From NCBI RefSeq assembly GCF_000798815.1, contig NZ_JTLD01000014.1, positions 124,001 through 188,000 of the forward strand: a stretch of DNA of 64,000 bases. Direction: 5' to 3'. Positions 1,911-11,993 of the stretch are shown here, in pieces. The DNA comes from Alistipes sp. ZOR0009 (GTDB lineage: Bacteria > Bacteroidota > Bacteroidia > Bacteroidales > ZOR0009). The position numbers and the translations under genes are program-made. The notes below the pieces were generated by a model, which had not been told where the DNA came from, ran no database searches, and saw only the letters and a program-made list of their open reading frames with translations. Numbering within the stretch: the stretch's first letter is position 1; every line of letters begins with the position of its first letter.

Positions 1911-2183
1911 TAACTTCCGATCATTTTGGCTGAACTTAGCTTCTCTTTTCCCCCTTTGATGAAATGCTTTAAAAGAAGTTTTTTCTTCCCTTTTTGTGAA
2001 GCGAGCAAACCTCTCTTTAAACCATTTCTAAGGCTTTCTGTATGTTTTTAAGGCCATTTTAAGGTTGATATTAGTGCAGGATTAGAAATGCTGCAAGCAG
2101 CGAAAAATGAGCTGTATTAAAATTACTATGTCTTTTTCTTTGCCTTACTTAGTTGATGAAATAATAGAATAAAAGCAACTGGT

Positions 2184-5100
2184 ATGTTAGAAGAAGAAGC
2201 AAATGCAGCCCTGATTTTGCAATGGAGCGGAATGGCTGAGTACGATATGGCACCCCAAGGCTTGCTACTTCATCATTTTTTTGAAGCGGCTGCTGCTCAC
2301 GATCCGAATGGCATCGCTATAGAGTATGATGGTGTAAAAATCTCTTACAAGGAGGTGGACGAGCGAGCTAACCAGTTTGCACGCTATCTTTCTGAGCAAG
2401 GCGTCTCTTTAGAAAGTAAGGTTGCCATAATGTTACCGCGTACGCCTTTTGTGTACATTGCCATGTTAGGTGTGCTAAAGGCTGGTGGTGCCTACATTCC
2501 GCTCGATCCTGAAATTCCTGGCGAACGAGTTGCTTATATTCTCGAAGATTCTAAGGCTACGCTTATTATTACCGCTCAGCAAATTATTGATAGAATAAGC
2601 GACGATCTTTCAGCGCATAGTGTATTCAATGTGGATGTTGATGCATCGCTGCTAGATAGGTACGAATTAACTAAAAATGAAGTTTTAGGTCTTTCTCCCA
2701 GCAACCTTTGCTATATCATCTATACTTCGGGTACAACCGGAAAACCCAAGGGCGTACTTCTTGAACATAGAAATGTGGCAACCTATATTGCTTCTGCCCA
2801 AAAGATTTACTCTATAGGTAAAAACGATCGTGCGTTACAAGGGTTTTCTGTAGCCTTTGATGCATCGGTAGAGGAGATTTGGGTGCCATTTTCGGTTGGT
2901 GCAACCGTTGTTGTTGGCACTTTTGAAATAATGCGCTCGGGCGATCGTTTTGCTGATATTCTTAGCCAGCTGAACATCTCGTTTCTTTCTTGCGCACCAA
3001 CTCTGCTTTCGATGGTCGACGGGGACATTCCGTCGTTGAGGACTTTGATTTTTGGAGGCGAGGTTTGCACTCCAGATATTGCCTACCGTTGGTGTAGAGG
3101 TAAGCGCGACGTTTTTAACACCTATGGGCCAACAGAGGCGGCGGTTATTGCCACCTACAGCAAGCTCGAACCTTTAGCCGAGGTTACCATTGGTCGTCCA
3201 ATGCCTCACTACATGGTAACCATCCTCAATGAAAACATGGAGGCAGTTGGGGTAGAGCAGGAGGGCGAAATTTATATAGGAGGAGAGGCTGTTGCTCGTG
3301 GATACTTGAATAGGGACGATTTATCAGCCCAAAAGTTTGTTACCATTGATAGATTTACAGGATCGCCAGTTCGTTTTTATAAAACGGGCGATCTAGGACG
3401 ATACAATGAAAAAGGGGAAATCGTATTTGTAGGAAGAGCGGACTCTCAGGTAAAAGTTCGTGGTTTTAGGGTAGAACTTTCCGAAATCGAAGGGCTCATC
3501 TTGAAGTGTGATGGGGTAAAAGCTTCGGTGGTTGCTTTAGACACAGAAACGCAGCAGCTCGCCGCATACGTGGTGGTCCGAGATGGTGAGGTTGTGAAAA
3601 GGGAGCAAATAGCGCTACTGCTTCGTAGCAAGCTCCCCTACTATATGATTCCTGCAACGCTCGATGAGATTGATGCGCTTCCGATGACTACCAGCTCAAA
3701 GGTTGATAGGAACAGATTGCCCAAACCTCAAAATCCGCTGGCCGTAAATGCTTCGAGAACGATTATCGAGCCATCTACACCACTCGAGGCTGCTCTTGTG
3801 GATATGTTGAAAAGCCATTTCGCTCGTACAGATGTTTCGATGGGGGATAATTTTTTCGATGACCTTGGAGGACACTCGTTGCTGGCTGCGCTCATTGTTT
3901 CCGATTTGCGAAAGCAGAAAATGTTCGAGACAATGTCTGTTGTGGACATTTACAAGAATCCAACAATAGCGAAGCTGGCCGCAGAATTGGAGCAGCGTTA
4001 TCAGGAGTCGGAGCAGACGAACAAGGTAGAGGTGGAGCGCGATTTTTACAAGCCATCGAGGTTAAGCTACTATACCTGCTGGTTTTTCCAAGGTCTATCA
4101 ATGATATTCCTAGCGTTCCTTTTTGGGATTGAATGGCTTGGTCCATTCTTCGTTTACTCGTACTACTATCAGGCCGATCAGGGGATTGCCTACTCTCTAA
4201 TGATGATGCTCGTTATGTACTTCGCATTGCTACCCACATTGTCGGTTCTTTCGCTGGCTTTGAAGTGGCTAATAATTGGTAAAATTAAAGCTGGGAAGTA
4301 TAAGCTTTGGAGCTTCTACTACTTTAGATTTTGGCTGGTAGATAAGATTATCAACATCACTCCTGTGATTTATTTCTCAGGAACGCCCATCATGAACCTT
4401 TACCTGAGGCTGCTTGGTGCAAAAGTTGGGAAAAATTCGTACATCAACACGCACTCTATTTCTGCTTTTGACTTGCTTAAGGTGGGCGAGAACGTGAGTA
4501 TATGTACCGATTCTCACCTTCGGGGATTTATCATTAAGGATGGATATTTAATTATTGGCAGCATCGAAATCGAGGACGACTGCTTTGTGGGTACCCGTTG
4601 CTGCATATCAGAGAATACCAAGATGCAGCGTAACTCTTCGCTCGACGACTTGACAATGCTTTTAAGCGGAGCTGTTGTTCCTGCAAATGAAAGTTGGCAA
4701 GGATCTCCAGGGCAAAAGGTGGGCACCAATAGCACTCCCGAGCGTACTAAGGTTTGGAATAGCTCCCATTTTATGGCCTACTTGATTGGGGTATTCGTAT
4801 TTCCTCTTCTTACCATGTTGGCCTACTTTCCAGGCATGATGCTAATTACCCACCTCGACTACTCTCGTGGTGATTACGGATTTCTTGCGCTCACAATTGT
4901 TGTGGCCGTTTCATTTGTATTTATGCTTTGTATCATTATAGCATTCCTGAAATGGGTAATGCTCGGAAATATAAAGGAGGGGCGATATAGGCTCAGCAGC
5001 ACATTCTACTACAAAAAATGGTTTTTTGATCAGCTGATGAGGTTAAGCTTACAGGTTATAGGTACGCTCTACACCACGCTTTACCTTCAAAAGTGGTTTA

Positions 5101-6149
5101 AGCTGCTGGGGGTAAAGATTGGCAAAAGGAGCGAGATTTCGACTGTTGAGTTTATATCTCCCGATCTTCTTGTGGCTGGCGACGAGTGCTTCCTTGCAGA
5201 TTCTGTCTCGGTAGGGGCCTCCCATGTACGCAATGGCTATATCAGCATTGCCAAAACGCATATTGGCGATAGAACTTTTGTCGGTAACAGCGCCGTGGTT
5301 AGTCCTGGTACTATTTTGGGGAACGACGTGCTGTTGGGGGTGCTCTCTAAGATGAAACCAGAGCATGTACCGACACCTAACGATACCTCCTGGTTTGGTT
5401 CGCCAGCAGTTTTTCTTCCAAGGCGCGATGTTAACCACGATTTTAGCGAGAGTCGCACCTACAAGCCATCTAGAAAACTTTTTATGCTACGCTACTTTAT
5501 CGAGTTTTTTAGGGTTACGCTTCCGGTAACGATGTTCATCGTTCTTGCTTCGATGATAACCAACGTAACCAGCTATCTGCAGGCCGAAAAGGACTTGGTG
5601 GAGCTATTCCTTCTATTTCCGTTGCTGTATATTGGAGCAAGCATTGTTGGCTTTGCCTTTATGGCTACCTTAAAATGGCTGGTTATAGGGAGGTATAAGC
5701 CGATGAATCGTCCGTTGTGGAGTGGTTTTGTTTGGCGTAGCGAGCTGGTAACGGGCTTTTACGAAAACTTCGGGGTGCTGTTTTTTATGAATATGCTAAC
5801 AGGTTCTCCATTTATAAAATTCCCACTTTGGCTTTTGGGAAGCAAGATTGGTAAGCGAACCTGTATATACACCACACAAATTACAGAGTTCGACTTGGTG
5901 AAGGTGGGCGATCACTCTGTTTTAAACGACAACTGTACCATCCAAACGCACCTTTTTGAAGATCGAGTAATGAAGATGTCCTACGTGGACATAGGAAAGG
6001 AGTGTACGGTGGGGGGAATGGCTGTTGTTCTTTACGATTCGCAAATGGAGGATGGCTCGAAGATCGAAAACCTCTCCGTGCTGATGAAGGGGGAGAGGCT
6101 GCCCGCCTTCAACACCTTTGTAGGGGCGCCCGCTAAGCCTTTAAGGTAG
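2184..6149 (+). CDS. Pls/PosA-type membrane nonribosomal peptide synthetase, poly-lysine synthetase-like
   Basis: A 1321-residue protein with the layout of epsilon-poly-L-lysine synthetase. An adenylation domain spans about residues 25-520: core motifs YTSGTTGKPKG near 178, FDASVEEIW near 226, NTYGPTEA near 312, YKTGDLGR near 400 and SSKVDR near 504. A carrier domain carries DLGGHSL with the phosphopantetheine serine near 565. Three membrane-soluble repeats follow: helix pairs near 631-693, 863-923 and 1100-1166, each followed by a hexapeptide-like left-handed beta-helix segment. There is no condensation or thioesterase domain. In Pls the three tandem C-terminal domains catalyse iterative isopeptide formation. 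The specificity positions, aligned by eye to GrsA, read D-A-E-S-I-G-T-V-I-K, close to lysine codes. It is a single-gene unit ending in a strong terminator. The exact amino acid and product are inferred. Confidence 0.85.
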   Translation: MLEEEANAALILQWSGMAEYDMAPQGLLLHHFFEAAAAHDPNGIAIEYDGVKISYKEVDERANQFARYLSEQGVSLESKVAIMLPRTPFVYIAMLGVLKAGGAYIPLDPEIPGERVAYILEDSKATLIITAQQIIDRISDDLSAHSVFNVDVDASLLDRYELTKNEVLGLSPSNLCYIIYTSGTTGKPKGVLLEHRNVATYIASAQKIYSIGKNDRALQGFSVAFDASVEEIWVPFSVGATVVVGTFEIMRSGDRFADILSQLNISFLSCAPTLLSMVDGDIPSLRTLIFGGEVCTPDIAYRWCRGKRDVFNTYGPTEAAVIATYSKLEPLAEVTIGRPMPHYMVTILNENMEAVGVEQEGEIYIGGEAVARGYLNRDDLSAQKFVTIDRFTGSPVRFYKTGDLGRYNEKGEIVFVGRADSQVKVRGFRVELSEIEGLILKCDGVKASVVALDTETQQLAAYVVVRDGEVVKREQIALLLRSKLPYYMIPATLDEIDALPMTTSSKVDRNRLPKPQNPLAVNASRTIIEPSTPLEAALVDMLKSHFARTDVSMGDNFFDDLGGHSLLAALIVSDLRKQKMFETMSVVDIYKNPTIAKLAAELEQRYQESEQTNKVEVERDFYKPSRLSYYTCWFFQGLSMIFLAFLFGIEWLGPFFVYSYYYQADQGIAYSLMMMLVMYFALLPTLSVLSLALKWLIIGKIKAGKYKLWSFYYFRFWLVDKIINITPVIYFSGTPIMNLYLRLLGAKVGKNSYINTHSISAFDLLKVGENVSICTDSHLRGFIIKDGYLIIGSIEIEDDCFVGTRCCISENTKMQRNSSLDDLTMLLSGAVVPANESWQGSPGQKVGTNSTPERTKVWNSSHFMAYLIGVFVFPLLTMLAYFPGMMLITHLDYSRGDYGFLALTIVVAVSFVFMLCIIIAFLKWVMLGNIKEGRYRLSSTFYYKKWFFDQLMRLSLQVIGTLYTTLYLQKWFKLLGVKIGKRSEISTVEFISPDLLVAGDECFLADSVSVGASHVRNGYISIAKTHIGDRTFVGNSAVVSPGTILGNDVLLGVLSKMKPEHVPTPNDTSWFGSPAVFLPRRDVNHDFSESRTYKPSRKLFMLRYFIEFFRVTLPVTMFIVLASMITNVTSYLQAEKDLVELFLLFPLLYIGASIVGFAFMATLKWLVIGRYKPMNRPLWSGFVWRSELVTGFYENFGVLFFMNMLTGSPFIKFPLWLLGSKIGKRTCIYTTQITEFDLVKVGDHSVLNDNCTIQTHLFEDRVMKMSYVDIGKECTVGGMAVVLYDSQMEDGSKIENLSVLMKGERLPAFNTFVGAPAKPLR

Positions 6150-6180: not shown

Positions 6181-6209
6181 AATGCCGAGGAGTTGTCCTC
6201 GGCATTTTT
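6181..6209 (+). terminator. Rho-independent terminator after the NRPS gene
   Basis: An 11-bp perfect stem, AATGCCGAGGA paired with TCCTCGGCATT, has a 4-nt loop and a following T-run. It lies 31 bases after the synthetase stop codon. Confidence 0.85.
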
Positions 6210-6211
6210 AA

Positions 6212-7453
6212 TTATAACTTATAACTAAGCAAGAAGTTAAAGTTTTTTGTAAACGTTTTAACGAATACCGCATCCGACATGCCATTCCCTATTTCATACC
6301 GAAATTCAACGGAGTAATTATTGTAATTAATACCACTACCTACAACTAGCCCTTGCTCATGTTTTCTAATTGCAAAAGCTGTAGATTCACGTGTGTGCGT
6401 AATTGTTGAGGAGTATTCTGTTTTTACGATTTGTTTGTTTTTGTTCTCTTTGATTACGAGTCCATTTGAAACCCCTATATTAAAAAAGATTGAGTAGTGT
6501 TTTAATGGAAACTTGGCTCGAACTAAATTTTGTAGTTTAATATATGTAAGGCTTAATTGAATAAATTTTTCTTCTTTTTCTGAACTGGTAATTGTATGTG
6601 AGGTTCCTTTAGCATTATACGATGTCATTCTTAGATCATTATAAATGGAAAATTTGCTAAGATTTCTAGGTAAGATGATGTTAAGGAATACACCCCCAGA
6701 TAGATTGTTAGAATTTGAAAATTTTACAGAACTGTTTTTAACATTGAAATTAGTTACAGTCAAACCTCCAATAATTCCAAATTCTGGCTTTATTTTGATT
6801 TCTTTTTTTTCAAATGCAATTTGTGAGTTTGTACATTGCTGGTAAAATTTGAAAATCGCTTTAAGATCCGACGTCTCGTACTTCAAATTGTTGATTTTAC
6901 TTCTTATTTTAGGGCAGTCTCTAAAGTAGTATGCTAGTTGTCCTTTGTATTTGTTGTTTTCAGCAATTCCTCTAACTGTGCCTGTTTTGTTTTCATCTAT
7001 ATATTTTTTATAGACAAGTAAGTTAATTGTAGAGTCTATGCTGATATAAAAGTTTGGCTTGATGGCAGTATTGTTAAGATAAAGCTTTTGCCGACCATCG
7101 ACAATAACTTGTAGGAATACGGTATCCTGTTGTAATTTTATACTGCTGTCGTAATCTATAAAGTAATTGTTGTTTGTGCTAGTCTCTACCTCAACGATGG
7201 CGCTTTCGTATCTATCATCGTCAGTTCCGAATCCTTTAATTGTTAATGGTGTGTGTGTGTGATACACACCATCTAGCGAAAGCTTAAATTTAATTTCTTT
7301 GGGGTTGCAAAGCCAGTTTCTGTAGTCTATGTATCCCTTAACTGTATCTCCTTTTACATCCAATATATACCCAGGGACATCATTTTTTTGCGAAAAGACA
7401 GCTGTTGATATTAAGCAAAAAAATAGCATGAAAGATTTTGATAGTAATTTCAT
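6212..7453 (-). CDS. Uncharacterised exported protein with possible C-terminal beta-barrel
   Basis: I do not recognise a named family. The 413-residue product starts with a clear type I signal peptide (MKLLSKSFMLFFCLISTAVFSQ). A beta-rich N-terminal segment follows with GYILDVKGDTVKGYIDY, a pattern seen in uncharacterised Bacteroidota envelope proteins. The last 180 residues alternate polar and hydrophobic residues and end in FNFLLSYKL, compatible with a small outer-membrane barrel. The gene is strikingly AT-rich compared with its neighbours, which may indicate transfer or low expression. It converges with the synthetase gene and stands alone. A structural or surface role is a guess. Confidence 0.6.
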   Translation of the reverse strand: MKLLSKSFMLFFCLISTAVFSQKNDVPGYILDVKGDTVKGYIDYRNWLCNPKEIKFKLSLDGVYHTHTPLTIKGFGTDDDRYESAIVEVETSTNNNYFIDYDSSIKLQQDTVFLQVIVDGRQKLYLNNTAIKPNFYISIDSTINLLVYKKYIDENKTGTVRGIAENNKYKGQLAYYFRDCPKIRSKINNLKYETSDLKAIFKFYQQCTNSQIAFEKKEIKIKPEFGIIGGLTVTNFNVKNSSVKFSNSNNLSGGVFLNIILPRNLSKFSIYNDLRMTSYNAKGTSHTITSSEKEEKFIQLSLTYIKLQNLVRAKFPLKHYSIFFNIGVSNGLVIKENKNKQIVKTEYSSTITHTRESTAFAIRKHEQGLVVGSGINYNNYSVEFRYEIGNGMSDAVFVKTFTKNFNFLLSYKL

Positions 7454-10190: not shown

Positions 10191-10649
10191 GTTAAGCGTA
10201 CCGAAGTCTATCAGAACAAAGGAACTACCTTGCCCTCGTGCTAATTTCTGCTGGTTAAGGGGGCGAAGTCGCATATATAGGGATGGGCTACCGAGTAAAA
10301 TTAGTACTTTTGATTGGTAGGTTTACTGCTAGGTGAAAAAGGCTGCTGGAAGGATCTGTCACTTATTCGCCAAGTTCTTTATCTCGATAATCTTATTACA
10401 TGGAGCGAAAATAGGGTGTAAAAGCTATAGATTGAAACTTAAAGGGCGGCGTGTTTTGCAATTCGAAACTTTACCTCTTTTAAATTTTGATATATTGTTA
10501 ATGGCATTGCCTTATTAGACTACAGGTTGAAACTTTATTTACTTGAAATGTTTATAAATTATCTGTTCTTGGGATAAAAAACTATCAAATTGTTTTTATG
10601 TATTGAAAAAATCAGTAAAATTGTCATTGTAAAAAATCAACCTACAACG
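10191..10649. other. AT-rich intergenic stretch before the aminotransferase
   Basis: No gene is supported here. Two copies of TTGAAACTT (near 10434 and 10527) are the only repeats noticed. The short frame at 10333-10518 has no family features. The region probably holds the promoter of the downstream operon, but no good TAnnTTTG box was found. Confidence 0.4.
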
Positions 10650-11993
10650 ATGAGACAAACACCTATTGACTTTAATACGGTAAATCGATTGAAGACGGAA
10701 TCGGGGATTGCTGGTATTGGAAAAGCCTCTATACGTGAATTGGTTAAGTTGGTTGGCCAGATAGAGGCTGCAACTAGCTCTAGCTTTGTGCGAATGGAGA
10801 TGGGAGTTCCTGGGTTAAAGACCCCGTCGGTTGCAATTGATGCCGAAATTGAAGCTTTAAGAAGTGGTGTTGCCTCAATCTACCCTTCTATAGAAGGTAT
10901 TCCCTCCCTAAAAACCGAACTTTCGCGTTTTGTTAAGAATTTTCTGGATATTGAAGTGGCAGAGGAGGGGTGTATTCCGACGGTAGGCTCAATGCAGGGT
11001 GGAATGGCCGCCTTTATGGTTACTAGCCGATACGATAAAGATCGCGATACGATTCTTTTTATCGATCCCGGATTTCCTGTTCAGAAAACTCAGCTTAAGA
11101 TGCTGGGGATAAGCTATGAGTCGTTTGATGTATACAACTATAGGGGTGAAAAGCTGCGTGCTAAGCTGGAGGAGTACCTTCAACAGGGCAATATCTCAAG
11201 CATTCTCTACTCTAATCCGAACAATCCCTCGTGGGTTTGCTTTACCGAAAAGGAGCTGCAGATTATCGGAGAGCTTGCCACAAAGTACGATGCTATCATA
11301 ATTGAAGATTTAGCCTACTTTGCAATGGACTTTAGAAAAGATATGTCGGTGCCCGGGAAACCCGCATTTCAGCCTACGGTTGCAAAGTATACCGATAACT
11401 ACATGCTTCTGGTTTCTGGGTCAAAAGCTTTTAGCTACGCAGGACAACGTATCGGAAGTATGATTATTTCTAACGCTTTGTTTAAACGTCAGTTTCCCGA
11501 CTTGAAGCGTTATTTCATGAACGATATTTTTGGGAAGGCCGTAATATTCGGACCAATTTATGGCTTATCTTCAGGTGTTGCTCATTCGGTACAGTACGGT
11601 TTTGCGGCCTTGCTTAAGGCTGTAAACGACGGAAAGTATAACTTTGTAAGCGATGTGAAGGTTTACGGAGAGCGAGCAAAAGTGCTGAAGAGGATCTTTA
11701 CCGAAAATGGATTTGAGATCGTTTATGATAGGGATGAAGATCAAATTTTGGCTGATGGATTCTATTTTACCGTAAACTACCCTTCTTTTACAGGCGAAGA
11801 GCTGGTGGAAGAGCTGCTGTACTATGGTGTAAGCGCTATTTCGCTAAGTACTACGGGGAGTGATAAAGAGGGGATCAGAGCTTGCGTATCGCAGGTTAAG
11901 CCCGAACAGTTTGAGGTACTAAGAGAGCGATTGGAGGTTTTCCACGCGCATCATCAGGCGAATAAAAAAATTAAGCCGGCATCATTAGTTTAA
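10650..11993 (+). CDS. PLP-dependent aminotransferase, class I/II
   Basis: Fold-type I aminotransferase of 447 residues. The pyridoxal-phosphate lysine is in VSGSKAFSYAGQRIG, preceded by the cofactor-binding Asp region IIEDLAYFAMD and the conserved YSNPNNPSW segment. I chose the ATG at 10650, because the longer frame begins at a TTG whose 20-residue leader has no family look. The gene is 28 bases from the ferredoxin subunit of the 2-oxoacid oxidoreductase and on the same strand. It therefore likely supplies 2-oxoacids, for example from branched-chain or aromatic amino acids, to that complex, or consumes them in the reverse direction. Substrate specificity cannot be read from the sequence. Confidence 0.85.
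   Translation: MRQTPIDFNTVNRLKTESGIAGIGKASIRELVKLVGQIEAATSSSFVRMEMGVPGLKTPSVAIDAEIEALRSGVASIYPSIEGIPSLKTELSRFVKNFLDIEVAEEGCIPTVGSMQGGMAAFMVTSRYDKDRDTILFIDPGFPVQKTQLKMLGISYESFDVYNYRGEKLRAKLEEYLQQGNISSILYSNPNNPSWVCFTEKELQIIGELATKYDAIIIEDLAYFAMDFRKDMSVPGKPAFQPTVAKYTDNYMLLVSGSKAFSYAGQRIGSMIISNALFKRQFPDLKRYFMNDIFGKAVIFGPIYGLSSGVAHSVQYGFAALLKAVNDGKYNFVSDVKVYGERAKVLKRIFTENGFEIVYDRDEDQILADGFYFTVNYPSFTGEELVEELLYYGVSAISLSTTGSDKEGIRACVSQVKPEQFEVLRERLEVFHAHHQANKKIKPASLV

What the first reader, a model, noticed from the sequence alone, without database searches (positions are those of the whole stretch)
2184..6149. Poly-lysine-synthetase-like membrane NRPS in an anaerobic Bacteroidota
Seen: one adenylation domain, one carrier domain, then three repeats of a membrane helix pair plus a hexapeptide-like soluble domain, with no condensation or thioesterase domain. 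Known: this is the layout of epsilon-poly-L-lysine synthetase and relatives, characterised mainly in actinomycetes. Inference: the ten specificity positions, aligned by eye, read D-A-E-S-I-G-T-V-I-K. The acidic residue at position 239 and the overall pattern resemble lysine codes such as that of the bacitracin lysine module. A homopolymer of a basic amino acid made by a gut-type anaerobe would be new chemistry for this group.
Basis: partly seen in the sequence, partly recalled or inferred. Interest (0 to 1): 0.75.

Follow-up and report, generated by a model that had tools for sequence, protein, structure and literature searches.

The report
Bacteroidales poly-lysine synthetase homologue
An oxygen-avoiding Bacteroidales bacterium carries an intact gene for a membrane enzyme of the known Pls/PosA family whose amino-acid pocket matches that of the Streptomyces poly-lysine synthetase, so it probably makes a lysine polymer; this is a new host group for a known kind of enzyme rather than a new kind of enzyme.

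Summary
Window 2184-6149 (+) encodes 1321 aa: adenylation domain, carrier domain, then three [TM pair + left-handed beta-helix] repeats, with no condensation or thioesterase domain. NCBIfam TIGR02353 (Pls/PosA terminal domain) matches end to end, 604.9 bits against a 423.1 cut-off. The solved S. albulus Pls adenylation domain (7WEW) reads DAESIGTVVK, and all five residues reported to bind lysine there are present. The protein is 28% identical to a Streptomyces Pls relative in the terminal domain, but belongs to a clade of 28 Bacteroidota loci at 66-78% identity, including Bacteroides neonati and Segatella paludivivens. Codon evolution in close pairs shows strong purifying selection. The gene stands alone and is patchy: 6 of 395 Bacteroidota genomes sampled, absent from two congeners. 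Bacteroidota hold at least three separate lineages of the family, one with a PosA-like (ornithine) pocket. The family is already known well beyond actinomycetes and named in NCBI annotation, so this is a new member of a known kind; the interest is a predicted polycation in anaerobic Bacteroidales.

The parts
2184..6149 (+). Pls/PosA-family synthetase gene, 1321 aa
2280..3722 (+). adenylation domain, residues about 33-513
   Evidence: AMP-binding and AMP-binding_C; AA-adenyl-dom TIGR01733 408.5 bits; aligns with 7WEW and 8G95
2859..2873 (+). pocket residues D226, A227, E230 (alpha-amine binding, chain-length position, side-chain amine binding)
   Evidence: roles from PMC10522769 and PMC11253843
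2988..2990 (+). S269, equivalent of Pls S256 (lysine contact)
3120..3122 (+). T313, equivalent of Pls T301 (lysine contact)
3699..3701 (+). K506, A10-motif lysine, equivalent of Pls K495
3786..4000 (+). carrier (thiolation) domain with phosphopantetheine Ser565 in DLGGHS (Ser codon 3876-3878)
   Evidence: PP-binding; invariant in seven-way alignment
4062..4727 (+). terminal domain repeat 1: TM helix pair plus left-handed beta-helix unit
4761..5423 (+). terminal domain repeat 2: TM helix pair plus beta-helix unit
5472..6128 (+). terminal domain repeat 3: TM helix pair plus beta-helix unit
5943..5975 (+). QTHLFEDRVMK motif; His1256 (5949-5951) is the only invariant His of the terminal domain, candidate catalytic base (inferred)
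   Evidence: 35-sequence alignment
6181..6206 (+). intrinsic terminator-like hairpin (11 bp stem, T-rich tail), 32 nt after the stop

Best explanation
It is a membrane-bound, single-module NRPS-like homopolymer synthetase of the Pls/PosA family that most likely makes an isopeptide-linked poly-L-lysine (epsilon-poly-L-lysine). The A domain activates L-lysine as Lys-AMP and loads it on the phosphopantetheine of Ser565 (inferred from the pocket and motifs). The six-helix, three-beta-helix terminal domain, a single-chain pseudo-trimer of the acyltransferase type, repeatedly joins the thioester-bound lysine to the side-chain amine of another lysine (inferred from Pls and PosA biochemistry); His1256 is my candidate for the base. 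The carrier domain is probably activated in trans by the genome's Sfp-like transferase. The polymer is presumably released across the membrane (not shown). Approximate confidences: family membership 0.98, lysine as main substrate 0.85, epsilon-poly-lysine as product 0.7.
For: TIGR02353 full length, 604.9 bits against a 423.1 cut-off. No C or TE domain. Code DAESIGTVIK against DAESIGTVVK read from the 7WEW alignment; the 7WEW lysine contacts D213, E217, S256, T301, K495 (PMC11253843) are all present as D226, E230, S269, T313, K506. Alanine at code position 2 is the reported mark of lysine enzymes, against Met (ornithine) and Phe (DAP/DAB) (PMC10522769). 58 of 74 homologues with a readable pocket have exactly this code. 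Six TM in three pairs; predicted fold as published for PosA, pLDDT 88.7, with LbH acyltransferases as nearest folds. dN/dS about 0.03-0.11 in close homologue pairs. PPTase present in the genome. In a related Bacteroidota clade the synthetase gene is followed directly by an Sfp-type PPTase gene.
Against: No activity data. Terminal domain only 28% identical to a Streptomyces Pls relative, so linkage and chain length cannot be read across with certainty. The V331I pocket change is untested, though shared by nearly the whole clade. No neighbouring degrading or resistance gene such as pldII; the gene stands alone. PosA shows that pocket inference can be off: its code was read as nearest to lysine but its substrate is ornithine; there, however, code position 2 is Met.
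Confidence: 0.75

Rival explanations
1. A Pls/PosA-family synthetase whose true monomer is another cationic amino acid (ornithine, hydroxylysine, beta-lysine, DAB), making a different isopeptide homopolymer.
For: Family members with other pockets exist: DMEHNG.V.K (PosA-like) in other Bacteroidota, DFE..... in PDAB-type genes. The PosA A domain accepted lysine weakly although ornithine is the substrate.
Against: The window pocket matches Pls at 9 of 10 positions and differs from PosA (Met, His, Asn), PDAB/PDAP (Phe) and beta-lysine (DGESISVVNK) codes at the positions shown or proposed to set chain length. No DAB aminotransferase or aspartate kinase was seen next to the gene, unlike the Streptomyces PDAB-type cluster.
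Confidence: 0.13
2. The enzyme activates lysine but uses the membrane acyltransferase domain to put one or a few lysines on an envelope acceptor (lipid or glycan) rather than making a free homopolymer.
For: The terminal domain has the fold of beta-helix acyltransferases and sits in the membrane; terminal-domain sequence is distant from Streptomyces Pls.
Against: PosA, whose terminal domain is 34% identical to this one, makes 7-12-mers from free ornithine in vitro (PMC10522769). The invariant QTHLF.DRVM motif is shared by window, PosA-like, PDAB-type and Pls proteins.
Confidence: 0.08
3. A decayed or silent copy with no product in this strain.
For: Patchy distribution: absent from two congeners and found in 6 of 395 Bacteroidota sampled.
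Against: Intact 1321-aa frame; all catalytic and pocket residues present; terminator in place; strong purifying selection across the clade.
Confidence: 0.04

Closest known systems
[quoted passage not shown]
   Same: A-T-(TM pair + C)x3 layout; pocket DAESIGTV-K; all five lysine contacts; QTHLF.DRVM motif (seen in the S. viridifaciens relative)
   Different: A domain 33% and terminal domain 28% identical to the S. viridifaciens relative of Pls; Ile for Val at the ninth code position; no adjacent pldII-type peptidase
PosA, delta-poly-L-ornithine synthetase of Acinetobacter baumannii (8G95-8G98)
   Same: same architecture, single-gene locus, terminal domain 34% identical, same predicted fold
   Different: pocket DMEHNGTVSK (ornithine) against DAESIGTVIK
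Bacitracin synthetase lysine module
   Same: lysine-type pocket; a published comparison finds the bacterial Pls and bacitracin synthetase lysine pockets conserved (PMC7179176)
   Different: a normal C-A-T module without the membrane terminal domain
Poly-diaminobutyrate / diaminopropionate synthetases
   Same: same family and architecture
   Different: Phe at code position 2 (DFE...), clustered with a diaminobutyrate transaminase and aspartate kinase gene in the plasmid example seen

Membership tests
Pls/PosA (cationic homo-polyamino acid synthetase) family | full-length TIGR02353 terminal domain above the curated cut-off | tested here: met
   604.9 bits against 423.1, profile 3-695/695
Pls/PosA (cationic homo-polyamino acid synthetase) family | single A domain plus single carrier domain, no condensation or thioesterase domain | tested here: met
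   Pfam scan
Pls/PosA (cationic homo-polyamino acid synthetase) family | six TM helices in three pairs, each pair followed by a soluble beta-helix domain | tested here: met
   hydropathy; AlphaFold2 model; beta-helix acyltransferase folds nearest
Pls/PosA (cationic homo-polyamino acid synthetase) family | Asp at code position 1 and Glu at position 3 of the pocket, conserved in CHPA synthetases (PMC10522769) | tested here: met
   D226, E230
Pls/PosA (cationic homo-polyamino acid synthetase) family | makes an isopeptide homopolymer of a diamino acid | not testable with these tools
   needs purified enzyme or culture analysis
epsilon-poly-L-lysine synthetase (Pls) subgroup | lysine pocket: Ala at position 2 and the five 7WEW lysine contacts | tested here: met
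epsilon-poly-L-lysine synthetase (Pls) subgroup | clusters with characterised Pls in a phylogeny | tested here: inconclusive
   window clade lies among DAES-pocket proteins of many phyla, not next to the Streptomyces Pls relative, which sits on a long branch
epsilon-poly-L-lysine synthetase (Pls) subgroup | adjacent epsilon-poly-lysine-degrading peptidase (pldII type); an associated feature, not a defining one, since PosA also stands alone | tested here: not met
   neighbours are menC- and menE-like genes, an unassigned 413-aa protein and an ATPase with two ABC domains

The most novel reading that the evidence does not exclude
Anaerobic Bacteroidales, including host-associated ones such as Bacteroides neonati, make and release epsilon-poly-L-lysine, giving this group a broad antimicrobial or surface-active polycation, while other Bacteroidota independently carry a PosA-like poly-ornithine enzyme.
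Probability: 0.55. Interest if true: 0.62.

Novelty: new member of a known kind. Interest (0 to 1): 0.42.

Why it matters
Cationic isopeptide homopolymers have antimicrobial activity and are known from actinomycetes, one Acinetobacter and fungi. A conserved lysine-pocket synthetase under purifying selection in anaerobic Bacteroidales predicts that this group can make such a polycation too, which could affect competition or adhesion in anoxic and gut communities. Named isolates that carry close homologues (Segatella paludivivens DSM 17968, Bacteroides neonati MS4) make it directly testable. The clade also gives good material for solving the unsolved terminal polymerisation domain.

Tried and rejected
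Ordinary NRPS or DltA-like ligase: rejected, full-length TIGR02353 match and no C/TE domain. Ornithine, DAB/DAP or beta-lysine pocket: rejected as first choice by residue-by-residue comparison. Biosynthetic operon: looked for conserved neighbours in 31 related loci; none conserved in the window clade, only a downstream PPTase gene in a sister Bacteroidota clade. Recent foreign DNA by composition: GC 0.456 against 0.429 for the window, no outlier. Solved structure of the terminal domain: no full-length terminal-domain chain among the 60 PDB sequence matches listed, and fold searches returned beta-helix acyltransferase-like proteins only (absence there is not proof). Literature for Bacteroidota poly-lysine synthetases: none in the held library.

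Full report
Observation. The open reading frame at 2184-6149 (+) starts with ATG and encodes 1321 residues. Pfam finds one AMP-binding domain with its C-terminal part, one phosphopantetheine attachment site and hexapeptide repeats, and neither a condensation nor a thioesterase domain. NCBIfam TIGR02353, the terminal domain that names the Pls/PosA family, matches residues 636-1317 over profile positions 3-695 of 695 with 604.9 bits against a curated cut-off of 423.1. Hydropathy gives six membrane segments in three pairs in the C-terminal half. At DNA level two stretches 1422 nt apart still show the internal repeat. A terminator-like hairpin lies 32 nt after the stop.

Terminal domain. An AlphaFold2 model built from 35 homologues (A4) has mean pLDDT 88.7 and pTM 0.88 and shows three repeats of two long helices, a strand, short helices and a beta-helix. 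This is the architecture published for the modelled PosA terminal domain (PMC10522769). Nearest solved folds are left-handed beta-helix acetyltransferases (best Z 8.3, 144 residues, rmsd 2.8, covering one unit). These are middling scores; they support a shared fold class, not a function. Across the 35 sequences His1256, in QTHLFEDRVMK, is the only invariant histidine, and a Streptomyces Pls relative keeps it as QTHLFHDRVM. That it is the catalytic base is my inference.

Substrate. A Streptomyces viridifaciens protein close to S. albulus Pls aligns with the solved Pls A domain 7WEW (E 1.4e-215), and the 7WEW row reads DAESIGTVVK. A review of A-domain structures lists D213, E217, S256, T301 and K495 as the residues that bind lysine in 7WEW (PMC11253843); all five are present here. 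In PosA the second position was shown to influence chain length (M218A raised lysine efficiency nearly ten-fold), and lysine enzymes carry Ala there (PMC10522769). PosA itself has DMEHNGTVSK, PDAB-type genes DFECLSAVTK, and beta-lysine enzymes DGESISVVNK.

Distribution. A scan of GTDB species genomes with the terminal domain gave 80 kept loci out of 365 confirmed. Twenty-eight are 66-78% identical, and all of these bear Bacteroidota titles, among them Bacteroides neonati (L029), Segatella paludivivens DSM 17968 (L042), Paludibacter and Muribaculaceae MAGs. Of 74 homologues with a readable pocket, 58 have exactly DAESIGTVIK; the set is biased towards the window because it was found with the window's clade. 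In a draw spread over the phylum 6 of 395 Bacteroidota genomes carry the family, and two congeners of the window genome do not. A tree of 32 proteins places Bacteroidota members in three separate groups: the window clade (next to an Elusimicrobia protein), a second DAES group (G008, Taibaiella and others) and a PosA-like DMEHNGSV group. Deep nodes are weakly supported, and the Streptomyces Pls relative sits on a long branch. The PosA paper already reported the family in many phyla.

Function in this genome. Close homologue pairs have dN/dS of about 0.03-0.11, so the gene is under strong purifying selection in its clade. The genome has one other strong adenylation-domain hit, below the NRPS cut-off, and an Sfp-like phosphopantetheinyl transferase in another contig. 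No heme-copper oxidase was found and a cytochrome bd was, consistent with an anaerobe or nanaerobe. The synthetase stands alone, as in A. baumannii: upstream are menC- and menE-like genes, downstream an unassigned 413-aa protein on the other strand. In both congeners menE is followed by tRNA-Ser(TGA), in one of them with a tyrosine recombinase next to it, so this is a variable site; GC content gives no sign of recent import.

Conclusion. Shown here: family membership, lysine-type pocket, predicted fold, phylogenetic spread and selection. Inferred: lysine activation, isopeptide polymerisation, release. It is a new member of a known kind. The novelty lies in the host group and in the finding that Bacteroidota hold several separate lineages with two predicted specificities.

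Noticed in passing
L011-L014 (G320, G213, G076, G154): Other Bacteroidota genomes carry a PosA-like synthetase with pocket DMEHNGSV[T/S]K, predicting poly-ornithine rather than poly-lysine; they group with A. baumannii PosA in the tree.
   Followed up: partly
L016 9445-14031; also L091, L094, L104, L106: A second DAES-pocket Bacteroidota lineage has a roughly 200-aa N-terminal extension; in L016 and L104 it weakly matches the last part of a Condensation domain (E 0.0076 and 0.038), as if the enzyme derived from a C-A-T module. In L016, L091, L099, L104 and L106 an Sfp-type PPTase-like gene follows directly.
   Followed up: partly
window 1911-2183 against L117 and L118: In two congeners menE is followed by tRNA-Ser(TGA), and in one by a phage-type integrase; in the window the synthetase gene sits there and ARAGORN finds no tRNA in the window. 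Looks like a site of gene turnover.
   Followed up: partly
window 6212-7453 (-): 413-aa protein with a signal-peptide-like start, GC 0.32 against 0.43 for the window, no Pfam or NCBIfam match.
   Followed up: no
window 10590-11993: A class I/II aminotransferase-like protein (Pfam Aminotran_1_2) that scores far below every NCBIfam cut-off listed; substrate unknown.
   Followed up: no
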